Shown here piece by piece: positions 26,215 to 41,808 of a DNA stretch of 50,634 nucleotides. This DNA is from Armatimonadota bacterium (GTDB lineage: Bacteria; Armatimonadota; Chthonomonadetes; Chthonomonadales; CAJBBX01). A program made the translations under genes and the position numbers. Below the pieces are notes generated by a model that saw only the letters and a program-made list of their open reading frames with translations, was not told where the DNA came from and made no database searches. Where the stretch lies: contig JAPLCQ010000105.1 of NCBI GenBank assembly GCA_026392115.1, forward strand, positions 1 to 50,634, read 5' to 3'. The first letter of the stretch is position 1. Each line of letters begins with the position of its first letter.

Positions 26215-28518
26215 TTAGCCTTGCGCGTGCTTGGTTCGGGCAATGATGTGCTCCTGCATCTCGCGGTCGAGAAGGCGGAACTGCTGGCTGAATCCCGATA
26301 CCCGCACACAGAGGTTCGCGTATCGGCCCGGGTCCTCCTGCGCGGCCCGCAACGTTTCGGCGCTGACGACATTGAACTGCAGCTGACCCACCCGCATACG
26401 GACCGCCGCCATCAGCAGGTCGACGAACGCATCAATGCCGCCCGACTCGAGCAAGGCCGGGTCCAGCTCCAGGATCGCCGAGCTGCTGGCCGCCACTCGG
26501 TGGTGCGGCAGCGCCGCCAACGACCGGACCACGGCGGTCAGTCCGTGCGTATCCCGGCCCTGTCCCGGAGACACGCTGTAGGCCAGGGGCTCTCCGGCGC
26601 GGCGACCATCGGGTGTGGCGCCGGTGGCGCGCCCCATGGGCAGCATGAGCGTGAATGTGAACAGGTGGGTGAAGAACCGCCCGCCTCGAACGGTCTGGTG
26701 TCCGTCCAACACGTCGCAGTACATGTCCACGAGCCGAGCGGCCATCGCGTCAGGCTCCGCGTCGTCATTGCCGTACCGCGCGCACCGCATCATCCGGCCG
26801 CGCAACGCTTCATGGCCCTCGAAGTCCGCACCCAACGCCGCCAGAATCTCGTCGGCCGTGGCCGAGCCATCGACGTACAGCACCTGGTTGAGGGCGGCCA
26901 GGCTGTCGGCCGCGTTGGGCACTCCCATGGCTGCGCTGGAGTGGTAGTTGTACCGTGCGCCGCCCTCTATGATGTCCATCCCGCGCCCGATGCAATCGTC
27001 CGTCAAAATGGAGAGGTAGGGTAGCCGGTACTGCGCTTGGTGCGCCGTCTCGGCCGAGTTGGACCCGTACACCGACCACGCCGCGAAGTGCTCGAGCTGC
27101 CGCCTGAATGCCGCCACCAAGCCGTCCATGCAGGAGCACTGGCGCAGGTCCGGTCCCACGGGGCCGACCTGGCGGCCGTCCCGCGGGTCGCGGCCTCCAT
27201 GGAGCGTGAGCTCCAGCACGCGCGCCAGGTTGATCCAGTGGCTGACAGCGTGCGGCGACGCCTTGCCGGGCACCGTGATCTCGATGCAGCCGATGGCGGC
27301 GTACCCTTGCGCATCCTCGATCGGGACGCCGTGATCGACCAGCGCCGGAACCAGCGCCTCGTCGTTGAAGAAGAACGGGATGCCGCCGCCTCGGGCTACC
27401 AGCTCCACGCATCGAGTGACAAAGGGCCTCGGCGATCCGTTGTGCAGGCGGGCGGAGAGGCACCGCACGAAATCCATCGCCTCGGTCACATCCAGCACCA
27501 GGTAGCTCAGCGGGTTCACCGCGTCGGAGCCGTCGGTTCGCCGGCCGCCCACCATCATCTGCTGCACGTCATAGGGCATGTAGAGCTTGAGCCAGAGCTC
27601 GGCAAGCAGGTCGGATGCTTCGGCGCGCGTTGTGCGCCCGGCTGCAAGGTCGGCCTCCAGGTAGGGCCACAGAATCTGGTCGATGCGTCCGATCCCGTTG
27701 GCGTTGACGCCGTCCTCCCAGACGGTGACCATATGCGCGAACCAGAGCGACTGAACGGCCTCGGCGAAGGTGTGCGCCGGCTGCGCGGGCACCCGCTCGC
27801 AGGTATCGGCCATGGTCTGTAGGCGCGTTCGCGTTGCTTCGTCGCGCGCGTCCGCCGCCTGGGCGCGTAGGGCCGCGGCATGTCGGACACCCAACCCCAG
27901 CGCGGCATCGGCCACGGCGCGGAACGCCCAGAGGGTGGCCCGACGCTGCGGCGCTTGCGGATCGGTCGGGGCCTGAGCCGCGAGACCGGCATCGATCCGG
28001 CTGATGATTCCGGTGAAGCCCTCGGAGAGTACCCGGCTGTAGTCGCGGATGCTGTGGTTCAGGTCCGTGCCCCAGACCTGCACGATGGCGCGGTCCTGGG
28101 CTTCCCGAAGCTCGGGCGGCCAACCGGCTACCGCGGCCAGCGACTGCCACGCGAAGGGCTGCGAAGCAACCCAGCCGCGCATCTCGTCAACTGCTTCGGC
28201 GGGCAGTCCGGCGGCAAGCGCCCGTTCGACCACGTCTCCGCCAAGATGCGAACGGAAGCCGACATTACTGTGGTCGCCGCCATGCTCACCGGCCAGCGAG
28301 GCCTCGCCGCTGAGCCCCAGCGGAATCTCACGGATCACGGCCGCCAGTGATCGCCCAAATCGCTCGGGCAACGAGGCCCCTTCGGCGTTGACCCATTCAC
28401 GGAGGAAGTGGTAATCCCGCCACGAGGTCAGGAGCGGCTGCGTCGGGGAATCCATCCGACGCTGTCGAAGCGCGGCCAGACGGGATGACAGCCGGAAGCG
28501 GTCGGCACTCTGCGGCAT
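26215..28518 (-). CDS. Glycyl radical enzyme (pyruvate formate-lyase family)
   Basis: A 767-residue glycyl radical enzyme. The thiyl cysteine is Cys411 in IGCIEITVPGK, with the adjacent acid Glu413; the radical glycine is Gly742 in RVSGFSQQF near the C-terminus. The single Cys followed by x-Glu places it with the dehydratase/lyase branch (glycerol dehydratase, HPAD, CutC-like) rather than PFL proper, which uses a Cys-Cys pair. The substrate is unknown. GGGAGGTG precedes the ATG by a few bases. No activase gene is in the window. The Ni/Co permease gene starts 22 nt after it, so the two may be cotranscribed. Confidence 0.93.
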   Translation of the reverse strand: MPQSADRFRLSSRLAALRQRRMDSPTQPLLTSWRDYHFLREWVNAEGASLPERFGRSLAAVIREIPLGLSGEASLAGEHGGDHSNVGFRSHLGGDVVERALAAGLPAEAVDEMRGWVASQPFAWQSLAAVAGWPPELREAQDRAIVQVWGTDLNHSIRDYSRVLSEGFTGIISRIDAGLAAQAPTDPQAPQRRATLWAFRAVADAALGLGVRHAAALRAQAADARDEATRTRLQTMADTCERVPAQPAHTFAEAVQSLWFAHMVTVWEDGVNANGIGRIDQILWPYLEADLAAGRTTRAEASDLLAELWLKLYMPYDVQQMMVGGRRTDGSDAVNPLSYLVLDVTEAMDFVRCLSARLHNGSPRPFVTRCVELVARGGGIPFFFNDEALVPALVDHGVPIEDAQGYAAIGCIEITVPGKASPHAVSHWINLARVLELTLHGGRDPRDGRQVGPVGPDLRQCSCMDGLVAAFRRQLEHFAAWSVYGSNSAETAHQAQYRLPYLSILTDDCIGRGMDIIEGGARYNYHSSAAMGVPNAADSLAALNQVLYVDGSATADEILAALGADFEGHEALRGRMMRCARYGNDDAEPDAMAARLVDMYCDVLDGHQTVRGGRFFTHLFTFTLMLPMGRATGATPDGRRAGEPLAYSVSPGQGRDTHGLTAVVRSLAALPHHRVAASSSAILELDPALLESGGIDAFVDLLMAAVRMRVGQLQFNVVSAETLRAAQEDPGRYANLCVRVSGFSQQFRLLDREMQEHIIARTKHAQG

Positions 28519-28622
28519 TGCTTTCACCTCCCAATGGACGCCCTTAGGATACTCCCTGCGCGCTTTCCCGGAGAGATGCTTGTCGATTGCGCCGGGAACT
28601 CGGCTCTCAGGCGGCGCGAAAC

Positions 28623-28651
28623 TCGACACGAATATCGATGCGTGGTAGACT
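28623..28651 (+). promoter_or_regulatory. Candidate promoter of the 122-residue hypothetical gene
   Basis: TCGACA (28623-28628), a 17-bp spacer and TAGACT (28646-28651), ending 37 nt before the GTG start; each hexamer departs from consensus. Confidence 0.45.
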
Positions 28652-28688
28652 GACCGCGTAAGGCGATTCTGCAATGGAGGGTATACAC

Positions 28689-29057: not shown

Positions 29058-29177
29058 CTCAGTCTAGCGCACGGAACTGAGGACGGTCTGCCGGGCCGGT
29101 TTCGGCAGAGCGATGGTTTGTCCGCGCCGATGCCGGATGCGGCAGGTTGGCGGGCGGCGTTTTGCACCCGTATGGTG

Positions 29178-29205
29178 GCCCGGGCGTACTGGTTGACGCC
29201 CGGGC
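29178..29205 (+). terminator. Intrinsic terminator upstream of the BMP-type ABC genes
   Basis: A perfect 10-bp stem GCCCGGGCGT/ACGCCCGGGC with an 8-nt loop, followed by GTTTCGTT. It would end transcription of the upstream hypothetical gene, and its 3' arm overlaps a -35-like hexamer. Confidence 0.7.
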
Positions 29206-29222
29206 GTTTCGTTCGCCATACT
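29193..29222 (+). promoter_or_regulatory. Candidate promoter of the BMP-type ABC operon
   Basis: TTGACG (29193-29198), an 18-bp spacer and CATACT (29217-29222). The predicted start would be within 2-5 nt of the ATG at 29232, implying leaderless or nearly leaderless mRNA, consistent with no visible Shine-Dalgarno. Confidence 0.45.
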
Positions 29223-29231
29223 GCACTCGAT

Positions 29232-30767
29232 ATGCGCTCCGATACTCCCCCTGCTGTGCGAATGCAGAGCATCACCAAGCGGTATCCCGGCGGCGTGGTG
29301 GCTAACGACGCCGTCTCTCTCACCGTCCTGCCCGGTACGGCCCACGCCGTCGTCGGTGAGAACGGCGCTGGGAAGTCCACCCTTATGGGTGTTCTCTACG
29401 GCTCCATTCGACCCGACTCGGGTTCCATCGAGGTCAGCGGCTCGCCGGTCACCCTTAGACGCCCCGCCGACGCGATCCGGCATGGCATCGGCCTCGTGAC
29501 GCAGCACACCACCATGATCCCGGCCCTCACGGCGCTTGACAACGTGCTTCTCGGCTTCGAGCCGAGCCGTCTGGGCGTTCTGGATCGGCGCATGGGCCGC
29601 AACCGCGTCGAGGAGTTGTCCGCACAAGCCGGCATCGAAGTCGATTGGGGCGCATCCGCCGACGCCCTCTCCGTTGCCGCTCTACAGAAGGCCGAAATCG
29701 TCAAGGCGCTCTACCGCGGCGCTCGCGTTCTGATCTTGGACGAGCCGACCGCCACGCTTGCCCCTGCCGAAGCCGACCGGCTCTTCGCCGTAGTACACGG
29801 TGTTGTCGCTTCCGGCGCATCGGTGCTCTTCATCACCCACAAGCTTCGCGAGGTGCTGGACCATAGCGACCATGTAACGGTCCTTCGCGGCGGCGCCAAG
29901 GCCGGTGATCGGGTCACAGCGGAGACCTGCGCCGATGAGCTGGTCTCACTGATGCTTGGCTCTGATCGATCGGTGGCGCATTCGGTCGAGGCCACGCCGG
30001 AAGCGTCACGCCGGTCCGAGCTTGCCCTACAGGTCAGCTCGCTCACCGTGCGCGGCCGCGGCGGGCGCCCGGCGGTTCACTCCGCCGATCTGTCGGTGCG
30101 CGCAGGAGAGGTGCTCGGCGTGGCAGGCGTCGACGGAAGCGGTCAGCGTGAACTGGCTGAGGCCGTCGTCGGCCTCCGATCCGCGGTATCCGGTTCCGTT
30201 ACGCTCTGCGGCGAGGACGTGACCGCGCGCTCCGTGGCGTCTCGCGCTGCTGCGGGCCTCGCCTATGTGCCGGAGGACCGCCACCGCGAGGGTCTCATCC
30301 TGGACTTCGACCTCTCTGAGAACTTGCTGCTCGGACGTCACCGCGACGCGTCCGCGGGCGGGGGGCGGTTCCTCCAGCGGCGCCGAGTGTTGGCCGACGC
30401 AGCACGGCTGTTGACGGAGGGCGGCGTAGTGTCCGCGGGCGCAACGGCGCCGGCGTCTTCGTTGTCGGGTGGGAACCAGCAAAAGGTGGTGGTGGCGCGC
30501 GCCCTGGCCCGTCGACCTCGCGCCCTGGTCGCCATGCAGCCCACGCGCGGGCTCGACGTGGGCGCCTCTGCGGCGGTCTACGACGCGATTCGTGCGCGCA
30601 CGGCCGCGGGGATGGGAGTGTTGCTCTTCTCGCTCGACCTGGACGAACTGCGCGAAGTGTCCGATCGCATCGCGGTGATGTACAACGGCCGCATTGCCGG
30701 CGTACTGGATCGCGACGACGCTGCGATGGATCAACTGGGCAAGCTGATGACCGAGGGGCGGCCATGA
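29232..30767 (+). CDS. BMP-type (nucleoside/simple-sugar) ABC importer, double ATPase
   Basis: A 511-residue protein with two fused nucleotide-binding domains, as in RbsA- and YufO/NupO-type importers. The first domain has Walker A VGENGAGKST (about 41-50), Walker B LILDEPTATLAP and a degenerate signature LSVAALQKAE. The second has the usual altered P-loop VDGSGQRELAEAVVG, the signature LSGGNQQKVVVARAL and PTRGLDVGA. ATG 29232 begins just before the first strand and is nearest the promoter; the frame is open upstream to 29118, but over a hairpin. The next permease overlaps by ATGA. The likely substrate is a purine nucleoside or similar, from family knowledge. Confidence 0.92.
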   Translation: MRSDTPPAVRMQSITKRYPGGVVANDAVSLTVLPGTAHAVVGENGAGKSTLMGVLYGSIRPDSGSIEVSGSPVTLRRPADAIRHGIGLVTQHTTMIPALTALDNVLLGFEPSRLGVLDRRMGRNRVEELSAQAGIEVDWGASADALSVAALQKAEIVKALYRGARVLILDEPTATLAPAEADRLFAVVHGVVASGASVLFITHKLREVLDHSDHVTVLRGGAKAGDRVTAETCADELVSLMLGSDRSVAHSVEATPEASRRSELALQVSSLTVRGRGGRPAVHSADLSVRAGEVLGVAGVDGSGQRELAEAVVGLRSAVSGSVTLCGEDVTARSVASRAAAGLAYVPEDRHREGLILDFDLSENLLLGRHRDASAGGGRFLQRRRVLADAARLLTEGGVVSAGATAPASSLSGGNQQKVVVARALARRPRALVAMQPTRGLDVGASAAVYDAIRARTAAGMGVLLFSLDLDELREVSDRIAVMYNGRIAGVLDRDDAAMDQLGKLMTEGRP

Positions 30768-31780
30768 TCCTGCGGCGCCTCGCCCCTGCCGTCCAGCCTC
30801 TGCTCTCCGTGGCAGGCGCCTTCGTCGTCGCGGGAGTCGTCGTATGGGCCTGCGGCGGCAGTCCGCTTGAGGCGCTGAGCGCGTTGTTGCAGGGCTCGTG
30901 CGGATCGTCGACGGGTCTCCTGCGTACGCTCTCCAAGGCCACGCCGCTGCTCCTGAGCGGGTTGGCGGTGGCGGTAGCGCTTCGGGCGGGGCTCTTCAAC
31001 ATCGGCGCCGAGGGGCAGTTGATCCTGGGAGCGCTGGCGGCGGCCTGGGCGGGCCATGCGTTCACCGGGCTTCCCGCCTGGGTCCACATTCCGATCTGTC
31101 TGGCCGCCGGCGTGGTCGTGGGCGCTGTCTGGGCGGCGATCCCCGGCGCCTTGCGCGCCTGGCGGGGGTCGCATGAGGTTATCGTGACCATCATGCTCAA
31201 CTACCTCGCCATCCAGCTCGCCCACTTCCTGGTTAACGGGGCCATGAAGGACCCCGTCAGCATGGCTCCGGCCACCTCAATGGTCGAGCCGTCGGCCCGG
31301 CTTTGGGCGGCCGCGGACGGCAGCAACTTCTCGGCGGGCTTCGGGCTGGCGCTGCTCGCCGCCGTGGGGGTGGCCGTGCTGTTGCGGCACACGGCGTTGG
31401 GTTTTGAGATCCGCGCCGTCGGGCTGGGCGCCGATGCCGCCCGGGTGGCCGGCGTCAACGTGGGTCGAACGATGATCTCAGCCATGGCCATTTCAGGCGG
31501 ACTGGCCGGACTGGCCGGCGCGATCGAGGTGCTGGGCGTCCATCGCCGCTACCTCGACGCGTTCTCGCCGGGCTACGGCTTCGACAGCATCGCCGTGGCT
31601 CTGCTCGGCGGCGGCAACCCGGTGGGTGTGACACTCTCGTCGCTCCTCTTCGGCGGCCTCAGCGCAGGCGCCACCCACATGGAGGCTTGGACCCACGTTC
31701 CCCGGCAGATCGCGGGCATCGTGCAGGGCGTGGTGATCTTCTCCGCGGGCGCCCGGTACCTGAAGGGGCGGCGGCGGTGA
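30764..31780 (+). CDS. BMP-type ABC importer permease 1
   Basis: A 338-residue polytopic permease of the BPD_transp_2 family (RbsC/YufP branch). Family markers are LFNIGAEGQLILGALAAAW, AIPGALRAWRGSHEVIVTIMLNYLAIQL and SAMAISGGLAGLAGAIEVLG, the last the coupling-helix region. About nine or ten hydrophobic helices are visible. It overlaps the ATPase gene by 4 nt (ATGA) and the next permease by GTGA, so the three should be made together. Confidence 0.93.
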   Translation: MILRRLAPAVQPLLSVAGAFVVAGVVVWACGGSPLEALSALLQGSCGSSTGLLRTLSKATPLLLSGLAVAVALRAGLFNIGAEGQLILGALAAAWAGHAFTGLPAWVHIPICLAAGVVVGAVWAAIPGALRAWRGSHEVIVTIMLNYLAIQLAHFLVNGAMKDPVSMAPATSMVEPSARLWAAADGSNFSAGFGLALLAAVGVAVLLRHTALGFEIRAVGLGADAARVAGVNVGRTMISAMAISGGLAGLAGAIEVLGVHRRYLDAFSPGYGFDSIAVALLGGGNPVGVTLSSLLFGGLSAGATHMEAWTHVPRQIAGIVQGVVIFSAGARYLKGRRR

Positions 31781-32646
31781 GCGGTCCCGAGCTCGCCGGA
31801 TTCCTCCTTCCGTTGGGCGTCTCGGCTCTTCGGCAGGCCACGCCGCTCGTCCTGGCCGGCCTGGGCGGCATCTGTTCCGAGCGCGTGGGGATCGTGAACA
31901 TCGCGCTGGAGGGCATGATGCTGGCCGGGGCGTTCTCGGGCCTCGTCGCCGGCCGTCTGGCAGGTCCCTTGGTCGGCGTGACGGTGGCCGTGACGGTGGG
32001 GATGCTGGTGGGGCTCACACATCTCTGGGCTACGCGCAAGCTGCGGTTGAACCATATCGTCAGCGGAGTCGCGATCAACCTCCTCGCCCTCCACTCCACC
32101 ACGTTCCTGCTTCGGCGGCTCTTCAATCAGGCGGACCCGCCGGTTGAGGCCCGCATCCAGACCATGCTCCCCACGGCGCTCTTCACGGGCCTCGCCCTGG
32201 CGCTGGTGGTGGTGTTCCACCTGCTTCTCTACTACACGCCGCTGGGCTTGCGCGTGAGGGCGGTGGGCGAGAGCGAGGCCGATACCCGCATGGCGGGGAT
32301 CGACACGGCCCGCGTGAAGATGATGGGTCTGGCGGCATCCGGCGTGTTGGCCGGGCTGGCCGGGGCCTACCTCTCGCTGGCGCAGGTGGGGCGGTTCAGC
32401 GACGACATGGTGAGCGGGCGCGGCTTCATCGCGCTGGCGGCAGTGGTCTGCGGACGCTGGACGCCTCTGGGGATGGCCGCCGCGGCGCTAGCTTTCGGCG
32501 CATTTGACGCGCTCCAGTTCCAACTGCAGGGCAGCGTCGCACTGCCGGGCGAGCTGCTGCGGAGCATCCCTTACATCGCCACGGTCGTAGCAGCCATGGC
32601 GCTCAGGCCCCGCCCGCCCGCCGATCTGGGCCGTCAGGAGGAGTAG
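31777..32646 (+). CDS. BMP-type ABC importer permease 2
   Basis: A 289-residue permease of the same family (YufQ branch). Markers are ATPLVLAGLGGICSERVGIVNIALEGMMLAGAF near the N-terminus and TARVKMMGLAASGVLAGLAGAYLSL around residue 185. GTG 31777 overlaps the previous stop (GTGA); the longer upstream frame would lie inside permease 1. It is the last gene of the run, and no BMP-family binding protein gene lies beside it. The convergent exporter gene ends 9 nt away. Confidence 0.93.
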   Translation: MSGPELAGFLLPLGVSALRQATPLVLAGLGGICSERVGIVNIALEGMMLAGAFSGLVAGRLAGPLVGVTVAVTVGMLVGLTHLWATRKLRLNHIVSGVAINLLALHSTTFLLRRLFNQADPPVEARIQTMLPTALFTGLALALVVVFHLLLYYTPLGLRVRAVGESEADTRMAGIDTARVKMMGLAASGVLAGLAGAYLSLAQVGRFSDDMVSGRGFIALAAVVCGRWTPLGMAAAALAFGAFDALQFQLQGSVALPGELLRSIPYIATVVAAMALRPRPPADLGRQEE

Positions 32647-32655
32647 GCCGCGCCG

Positions 32656-33471
32656 CTACGATCCTGTCGAGGCGTAACGACGCTCGCCGAGCTTCCAGAT
32701 CCGCAAGCACGCCGCCAGGAAGGGCGCCCCTACGCAGGGAGCCAGCCAGTTGAGCGGCGCGGGAAGCCCGCTGAGATCCGGGCGCGACAAGAGCGCGGCC
32801 AGGGGCACGTAGTTGATCGCAGCCAGCGGCACCGCCACCGTGAAGAAGAGCCGAAACCAGGGCCGGTAGATCGTCAGCGGGTACTGGGCCATCTGGTTGC
32901 CTCCGTAGGTGACGATGTTCACCACCTCCAGCGACTCGATGGTCCAGAACGCCAGCGTCGCCTGCAGCACGAAGAGCCCGGCGAAGATGCAGGCGCCGCC
33001 CACGACGCAGATTGCCAGTAACGCCACGCGCGCCGCGTCCCATTGGATGCCCACACCCATGCAGCCCCAGACGAGGATGGCGGCGCCCTGCGCCAGCCTC
33101 CCTACTCGCATGATCTGCACGTCGTGGGCCGCGAGCTGGAACGCCGTGGGCAGTGGCCGCAGCAACAGGCGGTCGAAGTCGCCCGTGCGGACCATGCCGG
33201 GGAAGACGTCGAAACCCCGGGCGCCGGCTTCGGCCAACGCGAAGGCCACGTTGCTGATGCCGTACAGCACCGCGACCTCCGATAGCCGCCACCCCGGCAA
33301 CGAACCGAACCGCGCGTAGAGCGCCCATATCGCGCCGAACTCGGCCAGCGTGGCCACCAGCTGCGAGGCCGAGTAGAGCGCAAACGAGGCCCTGTACTGC
33401 CACTGCGACCGCACGGAGGCGGCGGCCAGGCGGCCATAGATGCGTGCATGCCGCCGCACGGATCGGATCAT
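32656..33471 (-). CDS. ABC-2-type exporter permease (COG3694-like)
   Basis: A 271-residue membrane protein with about six helices and the family pattern YRASFALYSASQLVATLAEFGAIW, then GMVRTGDFDRLLLRPLPTAFQ and AQYPLTIYRPWFRLFFTVAVPLAAINYVP. In other genomes this partners a COG4587 permease and a COG4586 ATPase, both encoded here upstream. ATG 33471 is preferred (GAGGCGG nine bases before it) over TTG 33489. Here it comes after the secreted 983-residue protein, 10 nt behind the latter's stop codon plus a short untranslated stretch. The transported molecule is unknown. Confidence 0.85.
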   Translation of the reverse strand: MIRSVRRHARIYGRLAAASVRSQWQYRASFALYSASQLVATLAEFGAIWALYARFGSLPGWRLSEVAVLYGISNVAFALAEAGARGFDVFPGMVRTGDFDRLLLRPLPTAFQLAAHDVQIMRVGRLAQGAAILVWGCMGVGIQWDAARVALLAICVVGGACIFAGLFVLQATLAFWTIESLEVVNIVTYGGNQMAQYPLTIYRPWFRLFFTVAVPLAAINYVPLAALLSRPDLSGLPAPLNWLAPCVGAPFLAACLRIWKLGERRYASTGS

Positions 33472-33499
33472 CCCGGCGCCGCCTCGCAAGCCTTGCGCT

Positions 33500-36451
33500 C
33501 TACGGCTGCGGCGTCACGTAGAGCCACCGACCCACCGCCTCCGGCCCGACCGTGATGGCTAGCGAGCCCGCGTTCCGTTCGCACTTCACCTCGGCGCCGC
33601 GGCTACCCGGTCTCGCGCCCTCCGCATGGACCTTCACAGAGGCCGGGAGGCCCACATCCGGGATGCGAACCACGCCCTGTCCGTAGACCATGGCCTGCAG
33701 CACGGCACCGCCGGGCACGCGCCGCGCGTCCGGCACGGGCGCCCATGCCAGCTGGCCGATCGGGGCGTCGGCGTAGACGGTGGTCTTGCCGTCGACCGTG
33801 ATTGCGTTGGCCTGGCTTCCCGCAAAGGCGATCAGGTTGCCCGCGCCGTCCACCCGGAAGCACATGGAGCCCTTCCCCTTGTAGGTCACGGTATGGCCGT
33901 TGACGGCGGCGCTGTTCAGCTCCAATGTGTCGTCCGGCAGCGTGATCGTAGCCATGGCAGCCTTGTCGCGCTCCTCGTTCCTGGCGAAGCCTCCCTCCCA
34001 CTGCTCCTCGACCGTCCGCAGGTGGGGAGCTGCGGCCACGGCGCCGTTGGGGAACCGGCAGAAGAGGTAGGGCGTCGTGCGCGAGAGCGTCTCGGTGTTG
34101 CCCTTGCCGTCGTAGGCCCCCAGCGTGGCCAGGATATCGTAAAGCGTGCGCTCCTCGCGTCCCAGGCTCGCCGACTGGTCGTCACGCGGCCGGAAGCCCA
34201 GCGCCAAGCACAGACCGCCGCCCGGCAAGGTGCGCCGGACGCCGATGATGCGGCCTCGGCAGCGCGCCACGGGCTCGGATCCGGTCGCCGGCTCCAGCGG
34301 GTAGATACGGTCGACCAGCATATCGGTCAGGATGGTCTGCGGCGCCACCTGTTTGAGGCTGCCCTCGAAGGCTACCTGCCGTCCCGGCGCGATGACGCCG
34401 AGGTTGTGGCCGGGCTTGGTGGTCGCGCCGAACAGCTCGGACCATGCGGCAAGCGCGGGTTCGCCTTCGGCCGTGAGCGTCGGCGGCGGGCCGCACCAGA
34501 TCACACGGCCTCCGGCCCTGGCCAGTTCACCCATCATGGCCAGCAGCCTGGCGCTGGGCAGCGGTTCGAACTGCGCCATCAGCGTGGTGAACCGGCGGCC
34601 CGCCAGCACGATGGCCCCTCCCTCCACCTTTCCGAGCTCCACCAGCTTGGCCTGTGTGATCAGGTTGGCATAGCCGTACTGCGTCATCCACGACCCAAAG
34701 CGCTCCTCGGTCGCCACCAGGTCCAGCGGGTAGAGCATGAGCACGGAGACGTCGCGGTGCTGCATCTCCTGCACCATGCCGAAGAGCGGCGAGCCCGCCG
34801 CGCCGTAGACGTTCACCAGGTCCATGCGCCGGGCGTTGATGGCGTTGGGCATTCCCCAGTGTGCGCCGTAGGAGTAGGGGACCTCGTTGATGATGCCGGT
34901 GGAGCATGCCAGCGCCAGGCCGACGTAGTTGCGGTCGAGCCAGCCGCACTCGGCGTGGTCGTTGCCGTTGCCGGTGAGGAACTCTCCCCATTTGAAGTAG
35001 TCGTGGCAGGCGGACGCGGCCTGATGCACGGTGTTGGACCAGACGAAGTTCGGCGTGTACTCATAGGCCTGGCTGAACATGTTCTCGCCGTAGGCCCGCC
35101 AGTTGTCGATGGTCGGGCTCTCGGCCCAGGTAGCATGGGCGCGGGACTCGAGTTTGTGGCCCATGCGCGCCTCGGCGTGGCGCTTAGCCGCCGCGAAGAG
35201 CTCCACCACGCCGTCCTGCAGCAGGCGGTAGTAGCGCGACCGGAACAGCTCGGTGCGGCGGGCATCGTCCGGCGTGGCGCCCATGACGTGCGAGATTCGT
35301 TCGCCGGCCGTCAGGTCGTTGGCCTGGTCCTCCTGCCCGTAGGCGAAGAAGACCATGTACTTGGCCAGGTCGGCGTACTCGGCGCCGTACTTCTGCGCAA
35401 AGGTCCGCGAGAGGCCCGGCGACACGTAGCGCATGGCGAACTGGCCGTGGTCATGGTGCCCGAAATAGTTCCAGTCCTGCTGGATGTGCATCTCGTCGGA
35501 GTAGAGCGCGTTGAGCTTCACTCCGGCATCGGCGTACTTGTCGATCAGCTTCTTCAGGTAGGGGAGCGCCTTCGGGCTCAGGTAGTCCATTTCTGGCGTC
35601 TTGTACTGCTGCACCACCAGCACGCGCTCCAGGCCGCCCACGTCGGTGCGCCCCTTGCCGAAGACGCGGATCTGCACCGCCGACTTGCCCTCGGCCTCCT
35701 TCTCCATAAGCTCCACCGACGCGGTGTCGGTGATCTCGCGGATGCCTTTCGGGTCCACGGCGCGGTACGGAGTGCCGTTGATGGGCGCCTCATGGAAGGC
35801 GAAGACGCGGACGCCGGCGTCGGCGATCTTGAACGGTCCCTTGTTGTTGACCCAGATGCGCTGCTGCCAGAGCTGCACGCTGTACTTGCCCGTGGCCGCG
35901 TCGCGTCGGCCTTCGCGGTAGTGCATCCAGACGCCCTGCTCGCCGGTGGCCCGTGTATAGGCCTTGCCGATCTCCAGCGGCGTGAGAAGGCTCAGCTCCA
36001 GGCCCAGGCCGTACTGCTCGGCGAACCGGCCGATCTTGGCGATGCGCTGTACGTACTCGTCCATGTCCGGCATCAGGTTGCGCGGACCCGACTGGCCCGG
36101 CCGGTACTGGCTGAAGAAGTGGTCGAACGCAATGATGAGCGTCCGCTGGCCCGCGGCCTTGGCACGCTCGCACACCTGCCGGAGGCTGGCCTCCTCTTTC
36201 TGGAAGGTGAGCGTCAGGTTGAGCGCCTTGTCGGGATCTTCCAGCGCCTCGAACTCCTTGTCGCTGACGAGGATGATGCACGCCCTGCCGAGCTGGAAGC
36301 TCCAGGCGCCGGGGTACGAGACCAGTTCGCCCTTGTACACGTTCTCTGGGACGTCTTGCTTCACTGAGGTCTTCTCCTGTGCGTCGGCTGGGCCCGCGGC
36401 CATCCAGACGGCGGAGGCCAGAAGGGCGGCAAACGTTGACCAAGATCGCAT
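33500..36451 (-). CDS. Large secreted glycoside hydrolase-like protein
   Basis: A 983-residue exported protein. Signal peptide residues 1-24 end with a PADA|Q cleavage site. The region to about residue 530 looks like an (alpha/beta)8 barrel of the GH-A/GH42-like kind, with LIIAFDHFFS, LNALYSDEMHIQQDW (Asp319-Glu320, possible acid/base) and FVWSNTVHQAASACHDYF. The next part has a GATase-like/Rossmann segment (MGELARAGGRVIWCGPPP) as in GH42 trimerisation domains, then a beta-rich C-terminal domain. No family is certain and the catalytic residues are inferred. GAGGAG precedes the ATG. It lies between two permease genes of an ABC exporter. Confidence 0.6.
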   Translation of the reverse strand: MRSWSTFAALLASAVWMAAGPADAQEKTSVKQDVPENVYKGELVSYPGAWSFQLGRACIILVSDKEFEALEDPDKALNLTLTFQKEEASLRQVCERAKAAGQRTLIIAFDHFFSQYRPGQSGPRNLMPDMDEYVQRIAKIGRFAEQYGLGLELSLLTPLEIGKAYTRATGEQGVWMHYREGRRDAATGKYSVQLWQQRIWVNNKGPFKIADAGVRVFAFHEAPINGTPYRAVDPKGIREITDTASVELMEKEAEGKSAVQIRVFGKGRTDVGGLERVLVVQQYKTPEMDYLSPKALPYLKKLIDKYADAGVKLNALYSDEMHIQQDWNYFGHHDHGQFAMRYVSPGLSRTFAQKYGAEYADLAKYMVFFAYGQEDQANDLTAGERISHVMGATPDDARRTELFRSRYYRLLQDGVVELFAAAKRHAEARMGHKLESRAHATWAESPTIDNWRAYGENMFSQAYEYTPNFVWSNTVHQAASACHDYFKWGEFLTGNGNDHAECGWLDRNYVGLALACSTGIINEVPYSYGAHWGMPNAINARRMDLVNVYGAAGSPLFGMVQEMQHRDVSVLMLYPLDLVATEERFGSWMTQYGYANLITQAKLVELGKVEGGAIVLAGRRFTTLMAQFEPLPSARLLAMMGELARAGGRVIWCGPPPTLTAEGEPALAAWSELFGATTKPGHNLGVIAPGRQVAFEGSLKQVAPQTILTDMLVDRIYPLEPATGSEPVARCRGRIIGVRRTLPGGGLCLALGFRPRDDQSASLGREERTLYDILATLGAYDGKGNTETLSRTTPYLFCRFPNGAVAAAPHLRTVEEQWEGGFARNEERDKAAMATITLPDDTLELNSAAVNGHTVTYKGKGSMCFRVDGAGNLIAFAGSQANAITVDGKTTVYADAPIGQLAWAPVPDARRVPGGAVLQAMVYGQGVVRIPDVGLPASVKVHAEGARPGSRGAEVKCERNAGSLAITVGPEAVGRWLYVTPQP

Positions 36452-36518
36452 CGGGTCCGTCTCCTCACATGCGGCGTTCGACGTAGGCTTCGGCGCGGAC
36501 CGCCCGGTTTCCTGCGGA

Positions 36519-37263
36519 TCAGCCGCCCATGACGGTAAGCCGCCGCATGCCTCGGTTCACCATGGATCGCCCGAGCGCCACCAGAACCACCGTCCAGACC
36601 GACTGGTGCAGGAGGACGAGCCAGGCGCCCTCGGGGGCGATGTTGCCCGAGTAGAGCCGGAAGGGCAGGTCGACGATGCCGCTGAAGGGCAAGAGGACCA
36701 CCGCTCGACCGAGCCAGTCGGGCAGCAGCGCCAGGGGAGCGATGTTGCCAGAGAGGCTGAGCGCTACGGCTGCCAACAGGCGCGACGCGCCGTCGCCCGA
36801 GATGGTCCAGAGCGCCGAGGCCGTGAGGATCACCGTGAGCGCGCAGGCCAGCAGCAGCGCCAGGAGCATCGATGCGGAGAACCACGCGAACGAGGCCGCG
36901 CTCGCCGGGCCGGGCATGCCGAAGAGCAGCAGGGCGGCGGCCAGTAGCGGCACGCATCGGAGCAGCGTGGGGGCGGTCCGCATGGCCAGCGCCCGGGCGA
37001 ACCAGAGCGAGTAGAGGTCGATGGGCCGCGCCAGCTCGTAGGCCACGGAACCCGTGCGGACCTGGTCGCGCACGTCGGCGTCCACGTTCCATGGGAACAT
37101 GGCCAGGAAGGCCTGCCCCAGCCAGGGCCCGGTAGAAGGCCTCGAGGATCATGAGACGCAGGAAGCCCCAGGCCACCTGCGTGGCGAGACCGGCCGCCGC
37201 CGCGGCGCGGTACTGCAGCAGCAGGCGGCACCGCGTGCGAAGCACTGCCAGGTAGGGGCGCAT
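36519..37263 (-). pseudogene. ABC-2-type exporter permease (COG4587-like), frameshifted
   Basis: The first 46 codons from ATG 37263 encode a good COG4587 N-terminus (YLAVLRTRCRLLLQYRAAA to MILEAFYRA). The frame then fails: continuing gives an Arg/Pro-rich nonsense tail. From 37124 the +1-shifted frame gives the expected WLGQAFLAMFPWNVDADV, the loop RTGSVAYELARPIDLYSLW and the remaining helices, to a stop at 36519. Relatives normally have some 15-18 residues between these parts, so a short deletion that is not a multiple of three has occurred, or the assembly dropped bases. The ATG overlaps the ATPase stop (TGATG). Confidence 0.82.
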
Positions 37264-38243
37264 CAGGGCGCGTCGCGGTAGACCTGCGCCACCACTTCCT
37301 CGATGGGCCGGTCCGCCACCGTGAGGTCGCGAATGGGGAAGGCCGACGCGGCCCGTGCGATCAGCTCGTGCGTGGCTACCTGCTCGGGGTCGTACTCCAG
37401 CCAGAGCCGGTCGCCCTCGCGGCGGACCAACTCGGCTCCCTCCAGCTCCGCGTTGGCCACGCCGGCAGCCAGGTCGATCATCAACGTGCGCCTGGCGCTG
37501 CTCATGCGGCGGAGGTCGTCGATGGCGCCGTCAAGCAGCAGCGAACCGTCCGCGATGAGCAGGACGCGCCGGCAGAGGTCTTCGATATCGTCCATGTCAT
37601 GGGTGGTGAGTAGGACCGTGAGGCCCCGCTCGGCGGACCAGTCTCGGATCGCCTCGCGCAGGGCGAGCTTGGAGACGGCGTCGAGGCCGATGGTCGGCTC
37701 GTCCAGGAAGAGGATGCTGGGTCGGTGCAGCAGCGCCGCGGCCAGATCGCACCGCATCCTCAGTCCGAGGCTCAGCTGCCGCACCGGCGAGTCGAGGACC
37801 TCGGCCAGGTGGAACCGCTCCACCACGTCGGCCAGCGTCTCGTCGTAGTCGCGGCGGGCGACACCATAGATCTCGCGAAGCAGGGCGAAGGAGTCGATGA
37901 CGGGCAGGTCCCACCAGAGCTGCGTCCGTTGCCCGAAGACCACGCCGATGTGGCGGACGTGCGCGATGCGGTCGGCCCATGGGGTGCGTCCCAGCACGGT
38001 GGCCTCGCCGCCGTCGGGGTTCATGATGCCCGCGATGATCTTGATCGCCGTGGACTTGCCCGCGCCGTTGGGCCCGATACAGCCGACGATCTGGCCCGCC
38101 TCGATGTCGAACGTGATGCCCTTCAGGGCTTCGACGGTGCGGGTGCGGCGGTGGAGGAGGTCCCTCAGGGCGCCGAAGGGGCCACTGGACCGCAGCGGTG
38201 CGCGGAAGCTCTTGCGGAGGCCGCGGACCTCAATCTGCGCCAC
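37263..38243 (-). CDS. ABC exporter ATPase (COG4586-like)
   Basis: A 326-residue ATPase. Walker A IGPNGAGKST, the subfamily marker VVFGQRTQLWWDLPV, signature QLSLGLRMRCDLAAALL, Walker B ILFLDEPTIGLD and the switch THDMDDIE are present. The GQRTQLWWDLP phrase is typical of the COG4586 group that pairs with COG4587 and COG3694 permeases, both present downstream, one of them broken. It starts at GTG with no strong Shine-Dalgarno, 12 nt after the anti-sigma-like gene, so it may depend on translation of that gene. Confidence 0.93.
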   Translation of the reverse strand: MAQIEVRGLRKSFRAPLRSSGPFGALRDLLHRRTRTVEALKGITFDIEAGQIVGCIGPNGAGKSTAIKIIAGIMNPDGGEATVLGRTPWADRIAHVRHIGVVFGQRTQLWWDLPVIDSFALLREIYGVARRDYDETLADVVERFHLAEVLDSPVRQLSLGLRMRCDLAAALLHRPSILFLDEPTIGLDAVSKLALREAIRDWSAERGLTVLLTTHDMDDIEDLCRRVLLIADGSLLLDGAIDDLRRMSSARRTLMIDLAAGVANAELEGAELVRREGDRLWLEYDPEQVATHELIARAASAFPIRDLTVADRPIEEVVAQVYRDAP

Positions 38244-38255
38244 GGTCGGCCCGCG

Positions 38256-39179
38256 CTAGAAGCGGCTGCGGACGAGCGACACCGTGGCCTCGCGGCGGCC
38301 GTCGTGCCCGGTTTCCCATGTGTCGGGTAGCGGCTCCATGGCGGCTCGCGAGGATCGGATCGACGCCAGAGTGGCGACCACGCCGTCGGCCAGTCCGCTG
38401 GACTGCGCCGCCGACAGCACCACCACGGGTGCGGCAGTGGCCCGAGGCTCCGATGGCATTTCGTCGGACTCAAGCCACTCATCATCAGTGAGCATGGCCT
38501 GCGGCTCCGTGTCGGCTCGGCGTTCGGCGGCGGGCTGCGCCGTGGCCACGGTGCGCAACGCCGCGGGTTCGACCGGATCGGCGCTCAGCGTTGCGGTCGT
38601 CGGCCACCGGAGGACGGCGTAGGAGACGGCGGGGCGACGGGCGCGGGTAGGCGCCTCGCGGACGTCGGCGAGCTCCGTGCGTTCGACAGTGGAGCGAACC
38701 GGCTGCTCGGCGAAGGCCGTGGCGGAGACGGGGCGCACGACAGGCGCCGCGGCCGGCTCGGCGGACGCCACGGATGCCTGCACGGCGGGTTGCGTCAGAC
38801 GGCGCCAGAGCGCGATCATCGGGTGCGGCCGGGAGATGAACGATGCGTCCAGCCATGCGGACCCGGGTTTGTGGGCCACGACCAGCGTGAGCGCCGCCGC
38901 GCAGGCGCCGCACGCACCGGCCAGCGCGATGCGGCGATGCACGGCCCGGCGTCGGCGACCGTCTACCGTGGCGCTGAGGATGGCGCCGCGAAGCCCCGGA
39001 GGGACCGCCGGCTCCACCTCGTCCTGCTCGTTGGAGGCGATCCAGACGGCCATCTGGAGCGCCTGCCTGCACTGCGAACACCGCTCCAGATGCTGGTGCG
39101 CCGCGGCCAGCTCGTCGGCGGACGACCCCGCGGCGAGGAGCGCGGCCAGGGTGCGGTTTTGGTGCTTGCAGCGTTCCAT
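38256..39179 (-). CDS. Anti-sigma-factor-like protein with zinc-finger motif
   Basis: A 307-residue probable inner-membrane protein. The N-terminus has a zinc-binding anti-sigma-type motif, His30-x3-Cys34-x2-Cys37 in HQHLERCSQC. After a basic stretch (RRRRAVHRR) comes one hydrophobic helix, about residues 84-102. The rest, about 200 residues, is Ala/Pro/Glu/Arg-rich and of low complexity, likely extracytoplasmic. No ECF sigma gene is adjacent, unlike normal pairs. ATG 39179 begins the finger domain; the longer frame overlaps dapB. It lies between dapB (98 nt) and the exporter ATPase (12 nt). Confidence 0.7.
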   Translation of the reverse strand: MERCKHQNRTLAALLAAGSSADELAAAHQHLERCSQCRQALQMAVWIASNEQDEVEPAVPPGLRGAILSATVDGRRRRAVHRRIALAGACGACAAALTLVVAHKPGSAWLDASFISRPHPMIALWRRLTQPAVQASVASAEPAAAPVVRPVSATAFAEQPVRSTVERTELADVREAPTRARRPAVSYAVLRWPTTATLSADPVEPAALRTVATAQPAAERRADTEPQAMLTDDEWLESDEMPSEPRATAAPVVVLSAAQSSGLADGVVATLASIRSSRAAMEPLPDTWETGHDGRREATVSLVRSRF

Positions 39180-39277
39180 GGTCGAAGATCCTGAAGGTCG
39201 CCGGGGTGTTGCCCTCGTGCGCCAACTACATAGATGCGCCCCGGCGGCTCTTCGTTCCCGGTCAACCGGCAAGAGGC

Positions 39278-40099
39278 CTAAGCCGGGCTCCCCTGACCCA
39301 CCATGACATGCTCGAGGCCTACTCGGAGGCCCCGCACCGCGCCGATCCGTCGGATTGCCAGCACGACGCCTGGCATGAACGAGCGCCGGTCGATGCTGTC
39401 GTGCCGGATCGAGAGCGTCTGCCCCAGGGCGCCGAAGAGCACCTCCTGATGCGCCACCAGGCCGGGCAGGCGGATGCTGTGTACCGGCACGCCGTCGGGG
39501 CTCGCGCCGCGCGCGCCGGGCGACTTCTCGATCTGCCCTTCCGGCATGGGCAGTTGGCCGGTGCGGACCCGTGCGATGCGCGCCGCCGTCTCCATGGCGG
39601 TCCCGGAGGGGGAGTCGAGCTTCCTCTCGTGGTGGAGTTCGATCACCTCCACGTCGGGCATGTACCGCGCCGCCTCTTCGGCGAAGCGCATCATGAGCAC
39701 GGCTCCGATGGCGAAGTTGGGGGCCACCAGCAGTCCCAGCCCGGCCTCCTCGGCCACCGCGCCCAGCCGGTCGCGCTCGGCGGGATCGATGCCCGTGGAC
39801 CCGACCACGGCGCGGCACCCCTGCCGCAGGGCGGCCTCGATGTTGCCCACCGCCGACCGGGCCGGTGAGAACTCCACCAGCACATCGGCGCGTCCCGCCA
39901 GCCGTGCCTCGCCGACCGATCCCGCCACCGCGACGCCCAGCGAACCGATGCCCGCGAGCTCCCCGATGTCGGACCCGCTCGCCGCGGGGTCGATGGCCGC
40001 GACCAGCGCCAGGCCCTCGGCCTCGTGTACGGCTCGCACGACCTCCAGGCCCATGCGGCCCGCGGCTCCCGATACGGCGACTCGGATCTCCTGGCTCAT
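39278..40099 (-). CDS. dapB: 4-hydroxy-tetrahydrodipicolinate reductase
   Basis: A 273-residue DapB, the NAD(P)H-dependent step of the lysine/diaminopimelate pathway. The N-terminal dinucleotide loop VSGAAGRMG, VLVEFSPARS, STGIDPAERDRL, and the catalytic ELHHERKLDSPSGTA (His-His and Lys) are present, and the C-terminus has SIRLPGLVAHQEVLFG. Length is normal. ATG 40099 overlaps the M16 protease stop by 4 nt (ATGA), so the two are translated together. Confidence 0.96.
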   Translation of the reverse strand: MSQEIRVAVSGAAGRMGLEVVRAVHEAEGLALVAAIDPAASGSDIGELAGIGSLGVAVAGSVGEARLAGRADVLVEFSPARSAVGNIEAALRQGCRAVVGSTGIDPAERDRLGAVAEEAGLGLLVAPNFAIGAVLMMRFAEEAARYMPDVEVIELHHERKLDSPSGTAMETAARIARVRTGQLPMPEGQIEKSPGARGASPDGVPVHSIRLPGLVAHQEVLFGALGQTLSIRHDSIDRRSFMPGVVLAIRRIGAVRGLRVGLEHVMVGQGSPA

Positions 40100-41358
40100 G
40101 CTGCCTCCTCGGCCGCCGCGAGCCTTGCGAAGGGCCCGATGGCGGTGGTGGTGAGGCCGTCCGGATCCAGTCCGGCGGCGGCGACCTGCTGCACGTCGTC
40201 CAGCGTCACGGCGTTGATGCGCTTGGCGAATTCGTCCAACGAGGGCACGTAACCAAAGCTCAGGATCGACTTGCCCAGCCGCATCATGCGGGCGCTCATT
40301 CCCTCGAGGCCCAGGATCAGCGAGCCGCGCACCTGGTTCTTGGCCTTCGCCACCTCGTCCGGCGTGAGGCCCTCCCGCCGCACCTTGGCCAGCTCCGCGT
40401 GGACCAGCTCCAGCACCTGGTCGTAGGTATCGGGGCTGGTTCCGCCATAGACGGTGAAGTAGCCGCAGTCCTGGAAGACGGTCAGGTAGGAGCCGATGGA
40501 GTAGGCCAGCCCGCGCTTCTCCCGGATTTCCTGGAATAGGCGCGAGCTCATGTTGCCGCCCAGCACCATGTCGAGGATGGTGAGCGGGAAGCGGCGGACG
40601 TCGTGCTGTCCGGCGCCGTCGCCGCCAAGGCAGAAGTGGACCTGCTCCGTGCGCTTCCGTACGCTCTTGCTCAGTCGCGAGACGTGCGGCGGCTTGCGGT
40701 TCTTCCGCTTGGAGGCTCCCGCGTGGCCGCCCAGCATCTGCGACGCCAGCTCCACGATCCGCTCGTGCGGCACGTTGCCGGCCGCCGCCACCACCATCCG
40801 GTCCGGCGTGTAGTTCTCGGCCAGGTAGGCGCGCACGGCCGCGTCGTCCAGCTCGGCCACGGTCCGCGCCGTGCCCAGCACCGGCCGGCCCAGCGGGTGC
40901 CGCTTCCATAGCGTCTGCGTGAAGACATCGTGGATGATGTCGTCCGGCGTGTCCTCGTAGCGCTTGATCTCCTCGAGCACCACGTTGCGCTCCAGCGCCA
41001 GTTCGTCGGGGTCGAGCCTGGACGCCAGGAGCATGTCGCTCAGCACGTCCATGGCGACCTCGGCGTCCTCGGCCAGCGACTTCACGTAGAAGCAGGTGCA
41101 CTCCTTATCCGTGAAGGCGTTCAGCGACCCCCCGCGCGACTCGATGGCCTCGGCGATCTGCTGCGCGTTGCGCTTCTCCGTGCCCTTGAAGAGCATATGC
41201 TCGATGAAGTGCGAGATCCCCCGAACGCCGGCGGGCTCGTCCACCGATCCGGCATCCACCCAGAGCCCCAGCGAGAGGCTCTGCACGTGCGACGCGGTTT
41301 CCGATACGACCCGGACGCCGTTGGGAAGGGTGCTGAGTTGTATGGCCTCAGAGGGCAT
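40096..41358 (-). CDS. M16-family zinc protease (processing peptidase type)
   Basis: A 420-residue M16B peptidase. The inverted zinc motif HFIEH is at residues 50-54, with the distal Glu in LERNVVLEEIKRYEDTPDD; the C-terminal half has MVLGGNMSSRLFQEIREKRGLAYSIGS, the family arginine-tyrosine pair. Relatives such as YmxG of Bacillus often neighbour dapB or dpa genes, which is also seen here with dapB. AAGGA lies before ATG 41358; the longer open frame runs back through the tRNA and is not used. Confidence 0.94.
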   Translation of the reverse strand: MPSEAIQLSTLPNGVRVVSETASHVQSLSLGLWVDAGSVDEPAGVRGISHFIEHMLFKGTEKRNAQQIAEAIESRGGSLNAFTDKECTCFYVKSLAEDAEVAMDVLSDMLLASRLDPDELALERNVVLEEIKRYEDTPDDIIHDVFTQTLWKRHPLGRPVLGTARTVAELDDAAVRAYLAENYTPDRMVVAAAGNVPHERIVELASQMLGGHAGASKRKNRKPPHVSRLSKSVRKRTEQVHFCLGGDGAGQHDVRRFPLTILDMVLGGNMSSRLFQEIREKRGLAYSIGSYLTVFQDCGYFTVYGGTSPDTYDQVLELVHAELAKVRREGLTPDEVAKAKNQVRGSLILGLEGMSARMMRLGKSILSFGYVPSLDEFAKRINAVTLDDVQQVAAAGLDPDGLTTTAIGPFARLAAAEEAA

Positions 41359-41396
41359 GGATGGTCCTTTGGCTGCCGGGAGGCAGCGAACAGAAA

Positions 41397-41424
41397 GCGG
41401 CCTCGGCATCGGAGCCGAGGCCGC
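41397..41424 (-). terminator. Intrinsic terminator of tRNA-Gly
   Basis: A perfect 11-bp stem (41397-41407 with 41414-41424), 6-nt loop, followed on the minus strand by TTTCTGTT. It lies 5 nt after the encoded CCA of the tRNA and just upstream of the M16 protease gene. Confidence 0.88.
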
Positions 41425-41429
41425 ATGAA

Positions 41430-41504
41430 TGGAGCGGGAAACGGGACTCGAACCCGCGACCCTCTGCTTGGGAAGCAGATGCTCTACCACTGAGCTATTC
41501 CCGC
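41430..41504 (-). tRNA. tRNA-Gly (anticodon CCC), CCA encoded
   Basis: Complete cloverleaf on the minus strand. The acceptor is GCGGGAA/TTCCCGC, the D-arm GCTC/GAGC, the anticodon stem TCTGC/GCAGA with loop TTCCCAA, and the T-arm CGGG/CCCG with TTCGAGT. The anticodon CCC reads GGG. Discriminator T (plus-strand A at 41433) is followed by genomic CCA (41432-41430). Confidence 0.97.
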
Positions 41505-41808
41505 ACGAGCAGTTCCTCTTCCCGTTGATCGGTACCGCCCCCAGCATGCAGGGCAGAAGAACTGCCTCCAGTATATCCTCCGGACATCCCTCAGGTCAAG
41601 GAACGGTCTGGGTGGCGCTGTCGTTGGGGGGCGTGCCTGGGGCGGCTCTCTTGGTGGATCGCCCGGGGCGCGGGGTAGGCCTGGTCGGGGACGAACGTCT
41701 TAGTTGTGTGGAACGCTCGGAACGGAATTGCCTCTTGGGTTTCGCGCTTGCCCTATGGGCCGCCTCAAAGACACGCGCCGCCTGCCGCGCGTCACTGCGA
41801 GGCCGGTC
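41505..41808. other. Intergenic region between tRNA-Gly and the helicase fragment
   Basis: About 300 nt. It holds the tRNA-Gly promoter at 41570-41599. From 41600 to 41808 I see GC-rich sequence with no supported gene, clear hairpin or repeat. Confidence 0.5.
41570..41599 (-). promoter_or_regulatory. Sigma-70-type promoter of tRNA-Gly
   Basis: On the minus strand TTGACC (41599-41594), an 18-bp spacer and TATACT (41575-41570), 66 nt upstream of the tRNA 5' end. Confidence 0.75.

What the first reader, a model, noticed from the sequence alone, without database searches (positions are those of the whole stretch)
32656..38243. Large secreted glycosidase-like gene nested inside an ABC exporter operon
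The ATPase and COG4587 permease precede, and the COG3694 permease follows, a 983-residue exported protein gene. The exporter genes are normally contiguous, so either the protein is a substrate/partner, or the module was interrupted.
Basis: partly seen in the sequence, partly recalled or inferred. Interest (0 to 1): 0.5.

Follow-up and report, generated by a model that had tools for sequence, protein, structure and literature searches.

The report
Secreted glycosidase gene inside exporter operon
In one genus of a little-studied bacterial phylum, a gene for a secreted, probably sugar-cleaving enzyme lies inside a three-gene efflux pump operon; most relatives keep the two apart, so the pairing looks like local gene reshuffling, but the enzyme belongs to a widespread family that the protein libraries searched do not name.

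Summary
The arrangement is real. On the minus strand lie an ABC ATPase (37263-38243), an ABC-2 permease (36519-37263), a 983-residue signal-bearing protein "GHsec" (33500-36451) and a second ABC-2 permease (32656-33471). The order is kept in all three held members of the genus, under purifying selection. It is not a general partnership. The exporter is of the PF06182 / ethyl-viologen-exporter type. Among 35 Armatimonadota genomes with a close homologue of the second permease, 23 have the two permeases adjacent; only this genus has GHsec between them. GHsec occurs in 25 of 61 genomes (own included), independently of the exporter (Fisher p 0.79); 78 of 80 named loci show no such permease in the flanks held. 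Against this, one other genus keeps GHsec near an orphan second permease, so the linkage may be older than the genus. The GHsec model resembles GH42/GH35/GH164-type enzymes, with no Pfam, NCBIfam or PDB sequence match. Best reading: a derived insertion of a self-standing secreted glycosidase gene. The arrangement is ordinary; the unnamed enzyme family is the part worth keeping.

The parts
37263..38243 (-). ABC ATPase of the exporter (326 aa, GTG start)
   Evidence: PF00005 1.7e-25; 96% and 94% identical in two congeners
36519..37263 (-).
   Evidence: PF06182 on the 3' part, 2.1e-12; intact 262-aa gene in G001 and G002
33500..36451 (-). GHsec: 983-aa protein with Sec-like N-terminus, glycoside-hydrolase-like fold; putative catalytic E320 and E501; GAGGAG motif upstream of the ATG
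32656..33471 (-).
   Evidence: PF06182 5.1e-47; 96% and 92% identical in two congeners
38256..39203 (-). Gene just upstream of the ATPase, 12 bp away, same strand; a gene lies at the same place in both congeners; no Pfam hit

Best explanation
A three-gene efflux operon of the PF06182 / ethyl-viologen-exporter type (ATPase, permease, permease) was opened between its two permease genes by a GHsec gene in an ancestor within this Chthonomonadales family. All three held species of the genus keep it; one other genus of the family keeps GHsec near an orphan copy of the second permease. GHsec is probably co-transcribed with the exporter but works on its own: it is exported by Sec through its signal peptide and acts as a glycoside hydrolase outside the cytoplasm, with a (beta/alpha)8 barrel of the clan GH-A type, E320 (end of barrel strand 4) as likely acid/base and E501 (after strand 7) as likely nucleophile. 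The exporter expels a small molecule. Shown: order, conservation, lack of general linkage, fold match of the predicted model. Inferred: co-transcription, export route, hydrolase activity, catalytic residues, direction of the change, the exporter's substrate class.
For: Order conserved in 3 of 3 held genus members. Permeases adjacent in 23 of 35 genomes with a close second-permease homologue, in some with overlapping genes: the likely ancestral state. GHsec present in 25 of 61 genomes, close exporter in 23, both in 10, Fisher p 0.79. Of 80 named GHsec loci (the best 80 of 177) only the two congeners carry PF06182 permease homologues at over 60 bits; 58 of the 80 have at least 2 kb upstream and 1 kb downstream. 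In a clustering of flanking ORFs (L063 left out) no family appears in more than 7 loci. Model pLDDT 88.5, pTM 0.89; best VIA matches Z 15.1 (5gsl, 'Glycoside hydrolase A'), 14.9 (5xb7, GH42), 14.2 (7oms, GH164) over 512-599 residues. D319, E320, D498 and E501 are invariant in 58 of 58 aligned sequences (57 of the 80 loci plus the window).
Against: In G007, another genus of the family, GHsec lies one gene upstream of the second permease, and the second-permease tree groups G007 with this genus (96/90; G007 is flagged there as a long branch): an old functional tie is not excluded. The GHsec tree neither shows nor rejects that grouping (p-AU 0.463). Foldseek's global superpositions are poor (query TM-scores 0.30-0.38, rmsd 8.5-15 A). 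The catalytic residues were assigned from strand order in the model, not from a superposition; E160 and D110 are also invariant. Folding the barrel alone gave a poorer model (pLDDT 77.1). No activity is known. With the first permease broken, the exporter may not work in this genome.
Confidence: 0.7

Rival explanations
1. Functional pair: GHsec outside the cell releases a toxic aglycone from glycosides, and the co-expressed exporter protects the cell by expelling what leaks in.
For: Short gaps and conserved order in the genus; GHsec near the second permease in a second genus of the family; the exporter type includes a system assigned to ethyl viologen export in passages seen.
Against: Chance-level co-occurrence; no linkage in 78 of 80 GHsec loci in the flanks held; the exporter is broken or lacks parts in two of the genomes that keep the linkage; carbohydrate enzymes also flank control exporters (3 of 20 against 7 of 22, p 0.28).
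Confidence: 0.1
2. The exporter secretes GHsec (substrate).
For: Same operon only.
Against: GHsec has a Sec-like N-terminus, and relatives have Sec- or Tat-like ones (Sec by eye, Tat by a motif); 15 of 25 carriers among 61 genomes have no close exporter; the described member of this exporter type moves a small molecule.
Confidence: 0.02
3. GHsec is a non-catalytic, glycosidase-derived binding protein.
For: No sequence-level match to any named glycoside hydrolase family.
Against: Invariant acidic and aromatic residues at the predicted barrel strands in 58 sequences; dN/dS 0.076-0.095 within the genus.
Confidence: 0.13

Closest known systems
Ethyl viologen exporter family (TC 3.A.1.141, EvrABC)
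   Same: One ATPase and two PF06182 ABC-2 permeases encoded close together; family named in passages of PMC3924187, PMC5417439 (there 'DUF990 family') and PMC12997750. That PF06182 was formerly DUF990 is recalled.
   Different: A 2.95-kb secreted-enzyme gene lies between the two permeases; the first permease is broken in this copy; substrate unknown.
GH42 beta-galactosidases / GH35-type exo-beta-glucosaminidases (family number recalled) / GH164 beta-mannosidases
   Same: The predicted model aligns over 512-605 residues at Z 12-15.
   Different: 10-14% identity in those alignments; no Pfam GH hit; the profile search of PDB sequences gives only E 0.31 to 5gsl; a long beta insertion (about residues 173-285) in the barrel.
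Other intercalated exporter operons in Armatimonadota (genera g17 and g32)
   Same: Foreign genes between the same two permease genes: a GDSL-type hydrolase in G022, a histone-deacetylase-family gene and others in G042 and G066.
   Different: Different genes in each lineage, some secreted, some not.

Membership tests
Ethyl viologen exporter type ABC system (3.A.1.141) | Two PF06182 permeases and an ABC ATPase encoded together | tested here: met
   (first permease by its 3' part); link of PF06182 to this TC family partly recalled
Ethyl viologen exporter type ABC system (3.A.1.141) | The two permease genes adjacent (usual, not defining) | tested here: not met
   GHsec lies between them in this genus; adjacent in 23 of 35 related loci
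Ethyl viologen exporter type ABC system (3.A.1.141) | Both permeases intact (needed for function, not defining) | tested here: not met
   first permease frameshifted in the window; intact in G001 and G002
Ethyl viologen exporter type ABC system (3.A.1.141) | Efflux of viologens or similar compounds | not testable with these tools
   -
Clan GH-A glycoside hydrolases (GH42/GH35/GH164-like) | (beta/alpha)8 barrel with the accompanying domains of these enzymes | tested here: met
   (Z up to 15.1), on a predicted model; Foldseek global TM-scores are low
Clan GH-A glycoside hydrolases (GH42/GH35/GH164-like) | Catalytic Glu after barrel strand 4 and Glu at strand 7 | tested here: inconclusive
   E320 and E501 invariant in 58 of 58 and at those strands by my numbering of the model's strands; no superposition done; the clan rule is recalled
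GH42 (Pfam PF02449) | Pfam profile match | tested here: not met
   0 families for P0001 at E up to 0.01; no GH42 match among 10 diverse relatives at E up to 1
GH42 / any GH family | Hydrolysis of a glycoside | not testable with these tools
   -

The most novel reading that the evidence does not exclude
GHsec founds an unnamed clan GH-A family, strongly conserved (49-66% identity outside the genus among the 80 best loci) under eleven phylum names in the record titles; in this bacterial family it has been tied to an efflux permease, so that extracellular release of a harmful aglycone and its expulsion are run by one operon.
Probability: 0.07. Interest if true: 0.5.

Novelty: new member of a known kind. 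Interest (0 to 1): 0.28.

Why it matters
The gene order by itself is lineage-specific reshuffling and should not be used to infer that the exporter handles proteins or glycans. The useful outcome is the enzyme: a family of about 980 residues with secretion signals in most members, found in record titles naming Armatimonadota, Hydrogenedentota, Omnitrophota, Acidobacteriota, Verrucomicrobiota, Planctomycetota and others, with invariant putative active-site residues and no name in Pfam or NCBIfam. If active, it would be a common glycan-degrading activity that current annotation misses in uncultured environmental bacteria.

Tried and rejected
Substrate-of-exporter and obligate-partner readings were rejected on co-occurrence (Fisher p 0.79) and context.

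A broader idea, that PF06182 exporters in this phylum attract carbohydrate-active genes, was tested. Genera with one next to or inside the operon, on either strand: g1 (GHsec), g17 (GDSL hydrolase in G022 and G025, GxGYxYP protein in G025), g18 (GH42-like protein in G027; its homologue in G026 only reached a sub-threshold GH14 hit), g38 (GH2 in G243), g26 (GH32 in G036), g15 (GH106 in G019), g39 (GHL10 in G050): 7 of 22 genera. Paralogous exporters, used as control, had one in 3 of 20 loci (SASA and a sub-threshold GH99 hit in G022, GHL10 in G047, GH42 in G055). Fisher p 0.28. Limits: grouping and GH calls were made by hand; on both sides only chosen neighbours were scanned with Pfam (10 in the control), so both counts are lower bounds. 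Idea dropped.

Folding the barrel alone (residues 36-566) gave a worse model (pLDDT 77.1) and was not searched further. Paper searches for the exporter by COG number and by Synechocystis locus tags found nothing; that these tags belong to the Evr proteins is recalled. No CAZy library was at hand, so an existing CAZy family for GHsec is not excluded. The foldseek 'viral' library was not used. VIA lists only what Foldseek ranked first, so families missing there are not excluded.

Full report
What is there. The window is contig C99 of a 5.72-Mb, 181-contig genome. On the minus strand run an ABC ATPase (37263-38243), a PF06182 permease (36519-37263), a 983-residue protein with a Sec-like N-terminus, here GHsec (33500-36451), and a second PF06182 permease (32656-33471). 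ATPase and first permease overlap in TGATG; the next gaps are 67 and 28 nt, and GHsec has a GAGGAG motif ahead of its ATG. GHsec has one match in the genome, itself.

The first permease has no continuous frame here: a clean 44-bp deletion near 37125 shifts it. Intact copies exist in both congeners. Downstream of the deletion the window copy differs from G001 by 9 synonymous and 1 non-synonymous changes, so the break is very young or an assembly error. dN/dS within the genus: ATPase 0.085-0.099, GHsec 0.076-0.095, second permease 0.089-0.128, first permease 0.085 between G001 and G002.

Does the arrangement recur? In the genus, yes: 3 of 3 held genomes. Beyond it, 35 of 291 Armatimonadota genomes (own genus included) have a second-permease homologue at E at most 1e-50. 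Read at their loci: the two permeases are adjacent in 23. The ATPase is visible beside them in 20 of those (in G050 cut by the contig end); in G036 a GH32 gene sits where it would be, and in G065 and G243 the contig ends. They are intercalated in 6: G000, G001, G002 with GHsec, G022 with a GDSL hydrolase, G042 and G066 with other genes including a histone-deacetylase-like gene (tested by Pfam in G042 only). G025 is probably like G022, but two contig ends fall there. They lie apart on the contigs held in 4 (G007, G023, G026, G027; some of these contigs are short), and G069 is cut by a contig end. So adjacency is the majority state, and this junction was opened more than once with different genes.

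Is GHsec tied to the exporter? Among 61 genomes, own included, GHsec is found in 25 (in G006, G026 and G033 in pieces), the close exporter in 23, both in 10; Fisher p 0.79. Of 80 GHsec loci kept from 177 found in genome contigs, only the two congeners have PF06182 permease homologues at over 60 bits; 58 of 80 have at least 2 kb upstream and 1 kb downstream. In a clustering of flanking ORFs no family appears in more than 7 loci (L063 left out). One result runs the other way: in G007, another genus of the family, GHsec (66% identical) is followed by an alanine-racemase/D-serine-dehydratase-like gene and then the second permease. The permease tree groups G007 with this genus (96/90, G007 flagged as a long branch); the GHsec trees neither show nor reject that (p-AU 0.463). 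G007 has only a 45% fragment of the first permease elsewhere, with a stop, and no close ATPase (best 43%). So the neighbourhood is probably older than the genus, and it outlived the exporter's other parts there.

What GHsec is. No Pfam, NCBIfam or PDB sequence match; 10 diverse relatives give no accepted family, only five sub-threshold hits in all, at E up to 1; a 58-sequence profile reaches only E 0.31 in the PDB. The AlphaFold2 model is good (pLDDT 88.5, pTM 0.89). Foldseek's best hits are GH42 enzymes, a rhamnosidase, 'glycoside hydrolase B' and a phosphorylase at E 5.9e-14 to about 2e-12, with low global TM-scores (0.30-0.38 by query). VIA gives Z 15.1 (5gsl), 14.9 (5xb7, GH42) and 14.2 (7oms, GH164) over 512-599 residues. 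E320 at the end of barrel strand 4 and E501 after strand 7 (my numbering) are invariant in 58 of 58 (57 of 80 loci, chosen for length and spread, plus the window), matching the acid/base and nucleophile places of clan GH-A (recalled rule, no superposition). Relatives carry Sec-like N-termini, or a Tat-like motif in 10 of 58; a few predicted starts lack either. GHsec therefore most likely leaves the cell by Sec and cleaves a glycoside; substrate unknown.

What the exporter is. PF06182 permeases with an ATPase whose best NCBIfam hit is drrA, below its cut-off, fit the ethyl viologen exporter class (3.A.1.141; passages of PMC3924187, PMC5417439 and PMC12997750 seen; that PF06182 was formerly DUF990 is recalled). 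In the Bacillus cereus passage the ATPase and a membrane component bear consecutive locus numbers. A small-molecule substrate is inferred.

Chance background. Carbohydrate genes are common in this phylum: Fervidibacter sacchari has 117 putative GH enzymes (starts of the abstracts of PMC11079163 and PMC12485897 in the listings). They lie next to the exporter in 7 of 22 genera but also next to paralogous exporters in 3 of 20 control loci (p 0.28; chosen neighbours only, both counts lower bounds). No attraction can be claimed.

Verdict. The interrupted-module half of the interpretation fits; the substrate half does not; a partner role is unlikely but not excluded within this one bacterial family. 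The lasting point is an unnamed, strongly conserved, cross-phylum family of secreted glycosidase-like proteins.

Noticed in passing
window 36519-37263 (-): The first exporter permease carries a 44-bp frameshifting deletion, absent from both congeners; real or an assembly error is undecided.
   Followed up: partly
L165 (G007 contig C36) 5767-6105 and L143 11338-12123: G007 keeps an intact second permease near GHsec while the first permease is a fragment elsewhere and no close ATPase is found: an orphan exporter subunit.
   Followed up: partly
L147 7802-15053 and L189 782-5900: In genus g32 the same exporter operon is opened by a histone-deacetylase-family gene, plus an 858-aa secreted-looking protein without Pfam match in G042, or DUF418 and (by eye) TetR-like genes in G066.
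   Followed up: partly
L149 7210-8499 and L166 106-1251: Genus g17 has a secreted-looking GDSL-type hydrolase after the first permease, between the two permeases in G022.
   Followed up: partly
window 29118-32646 (+): An importer-type ABC operon (ATPase with two ABC stretches and two BPD_transp_2 permeases) converges on the exporter operon with 9 bp between the genes.
   Followed up: no
window 26215-28674 (-): Glycyl-radical enzyme of the pyruvate-formate-lyase-like family that reaches no listed NCBIfam cut-off.
   Followed up: no
window 41430-41504 (-): tRNA-Gly gene inside the over-extended 5' end of the M16 peptidase ORF 40096-41547.
   Followed up: no
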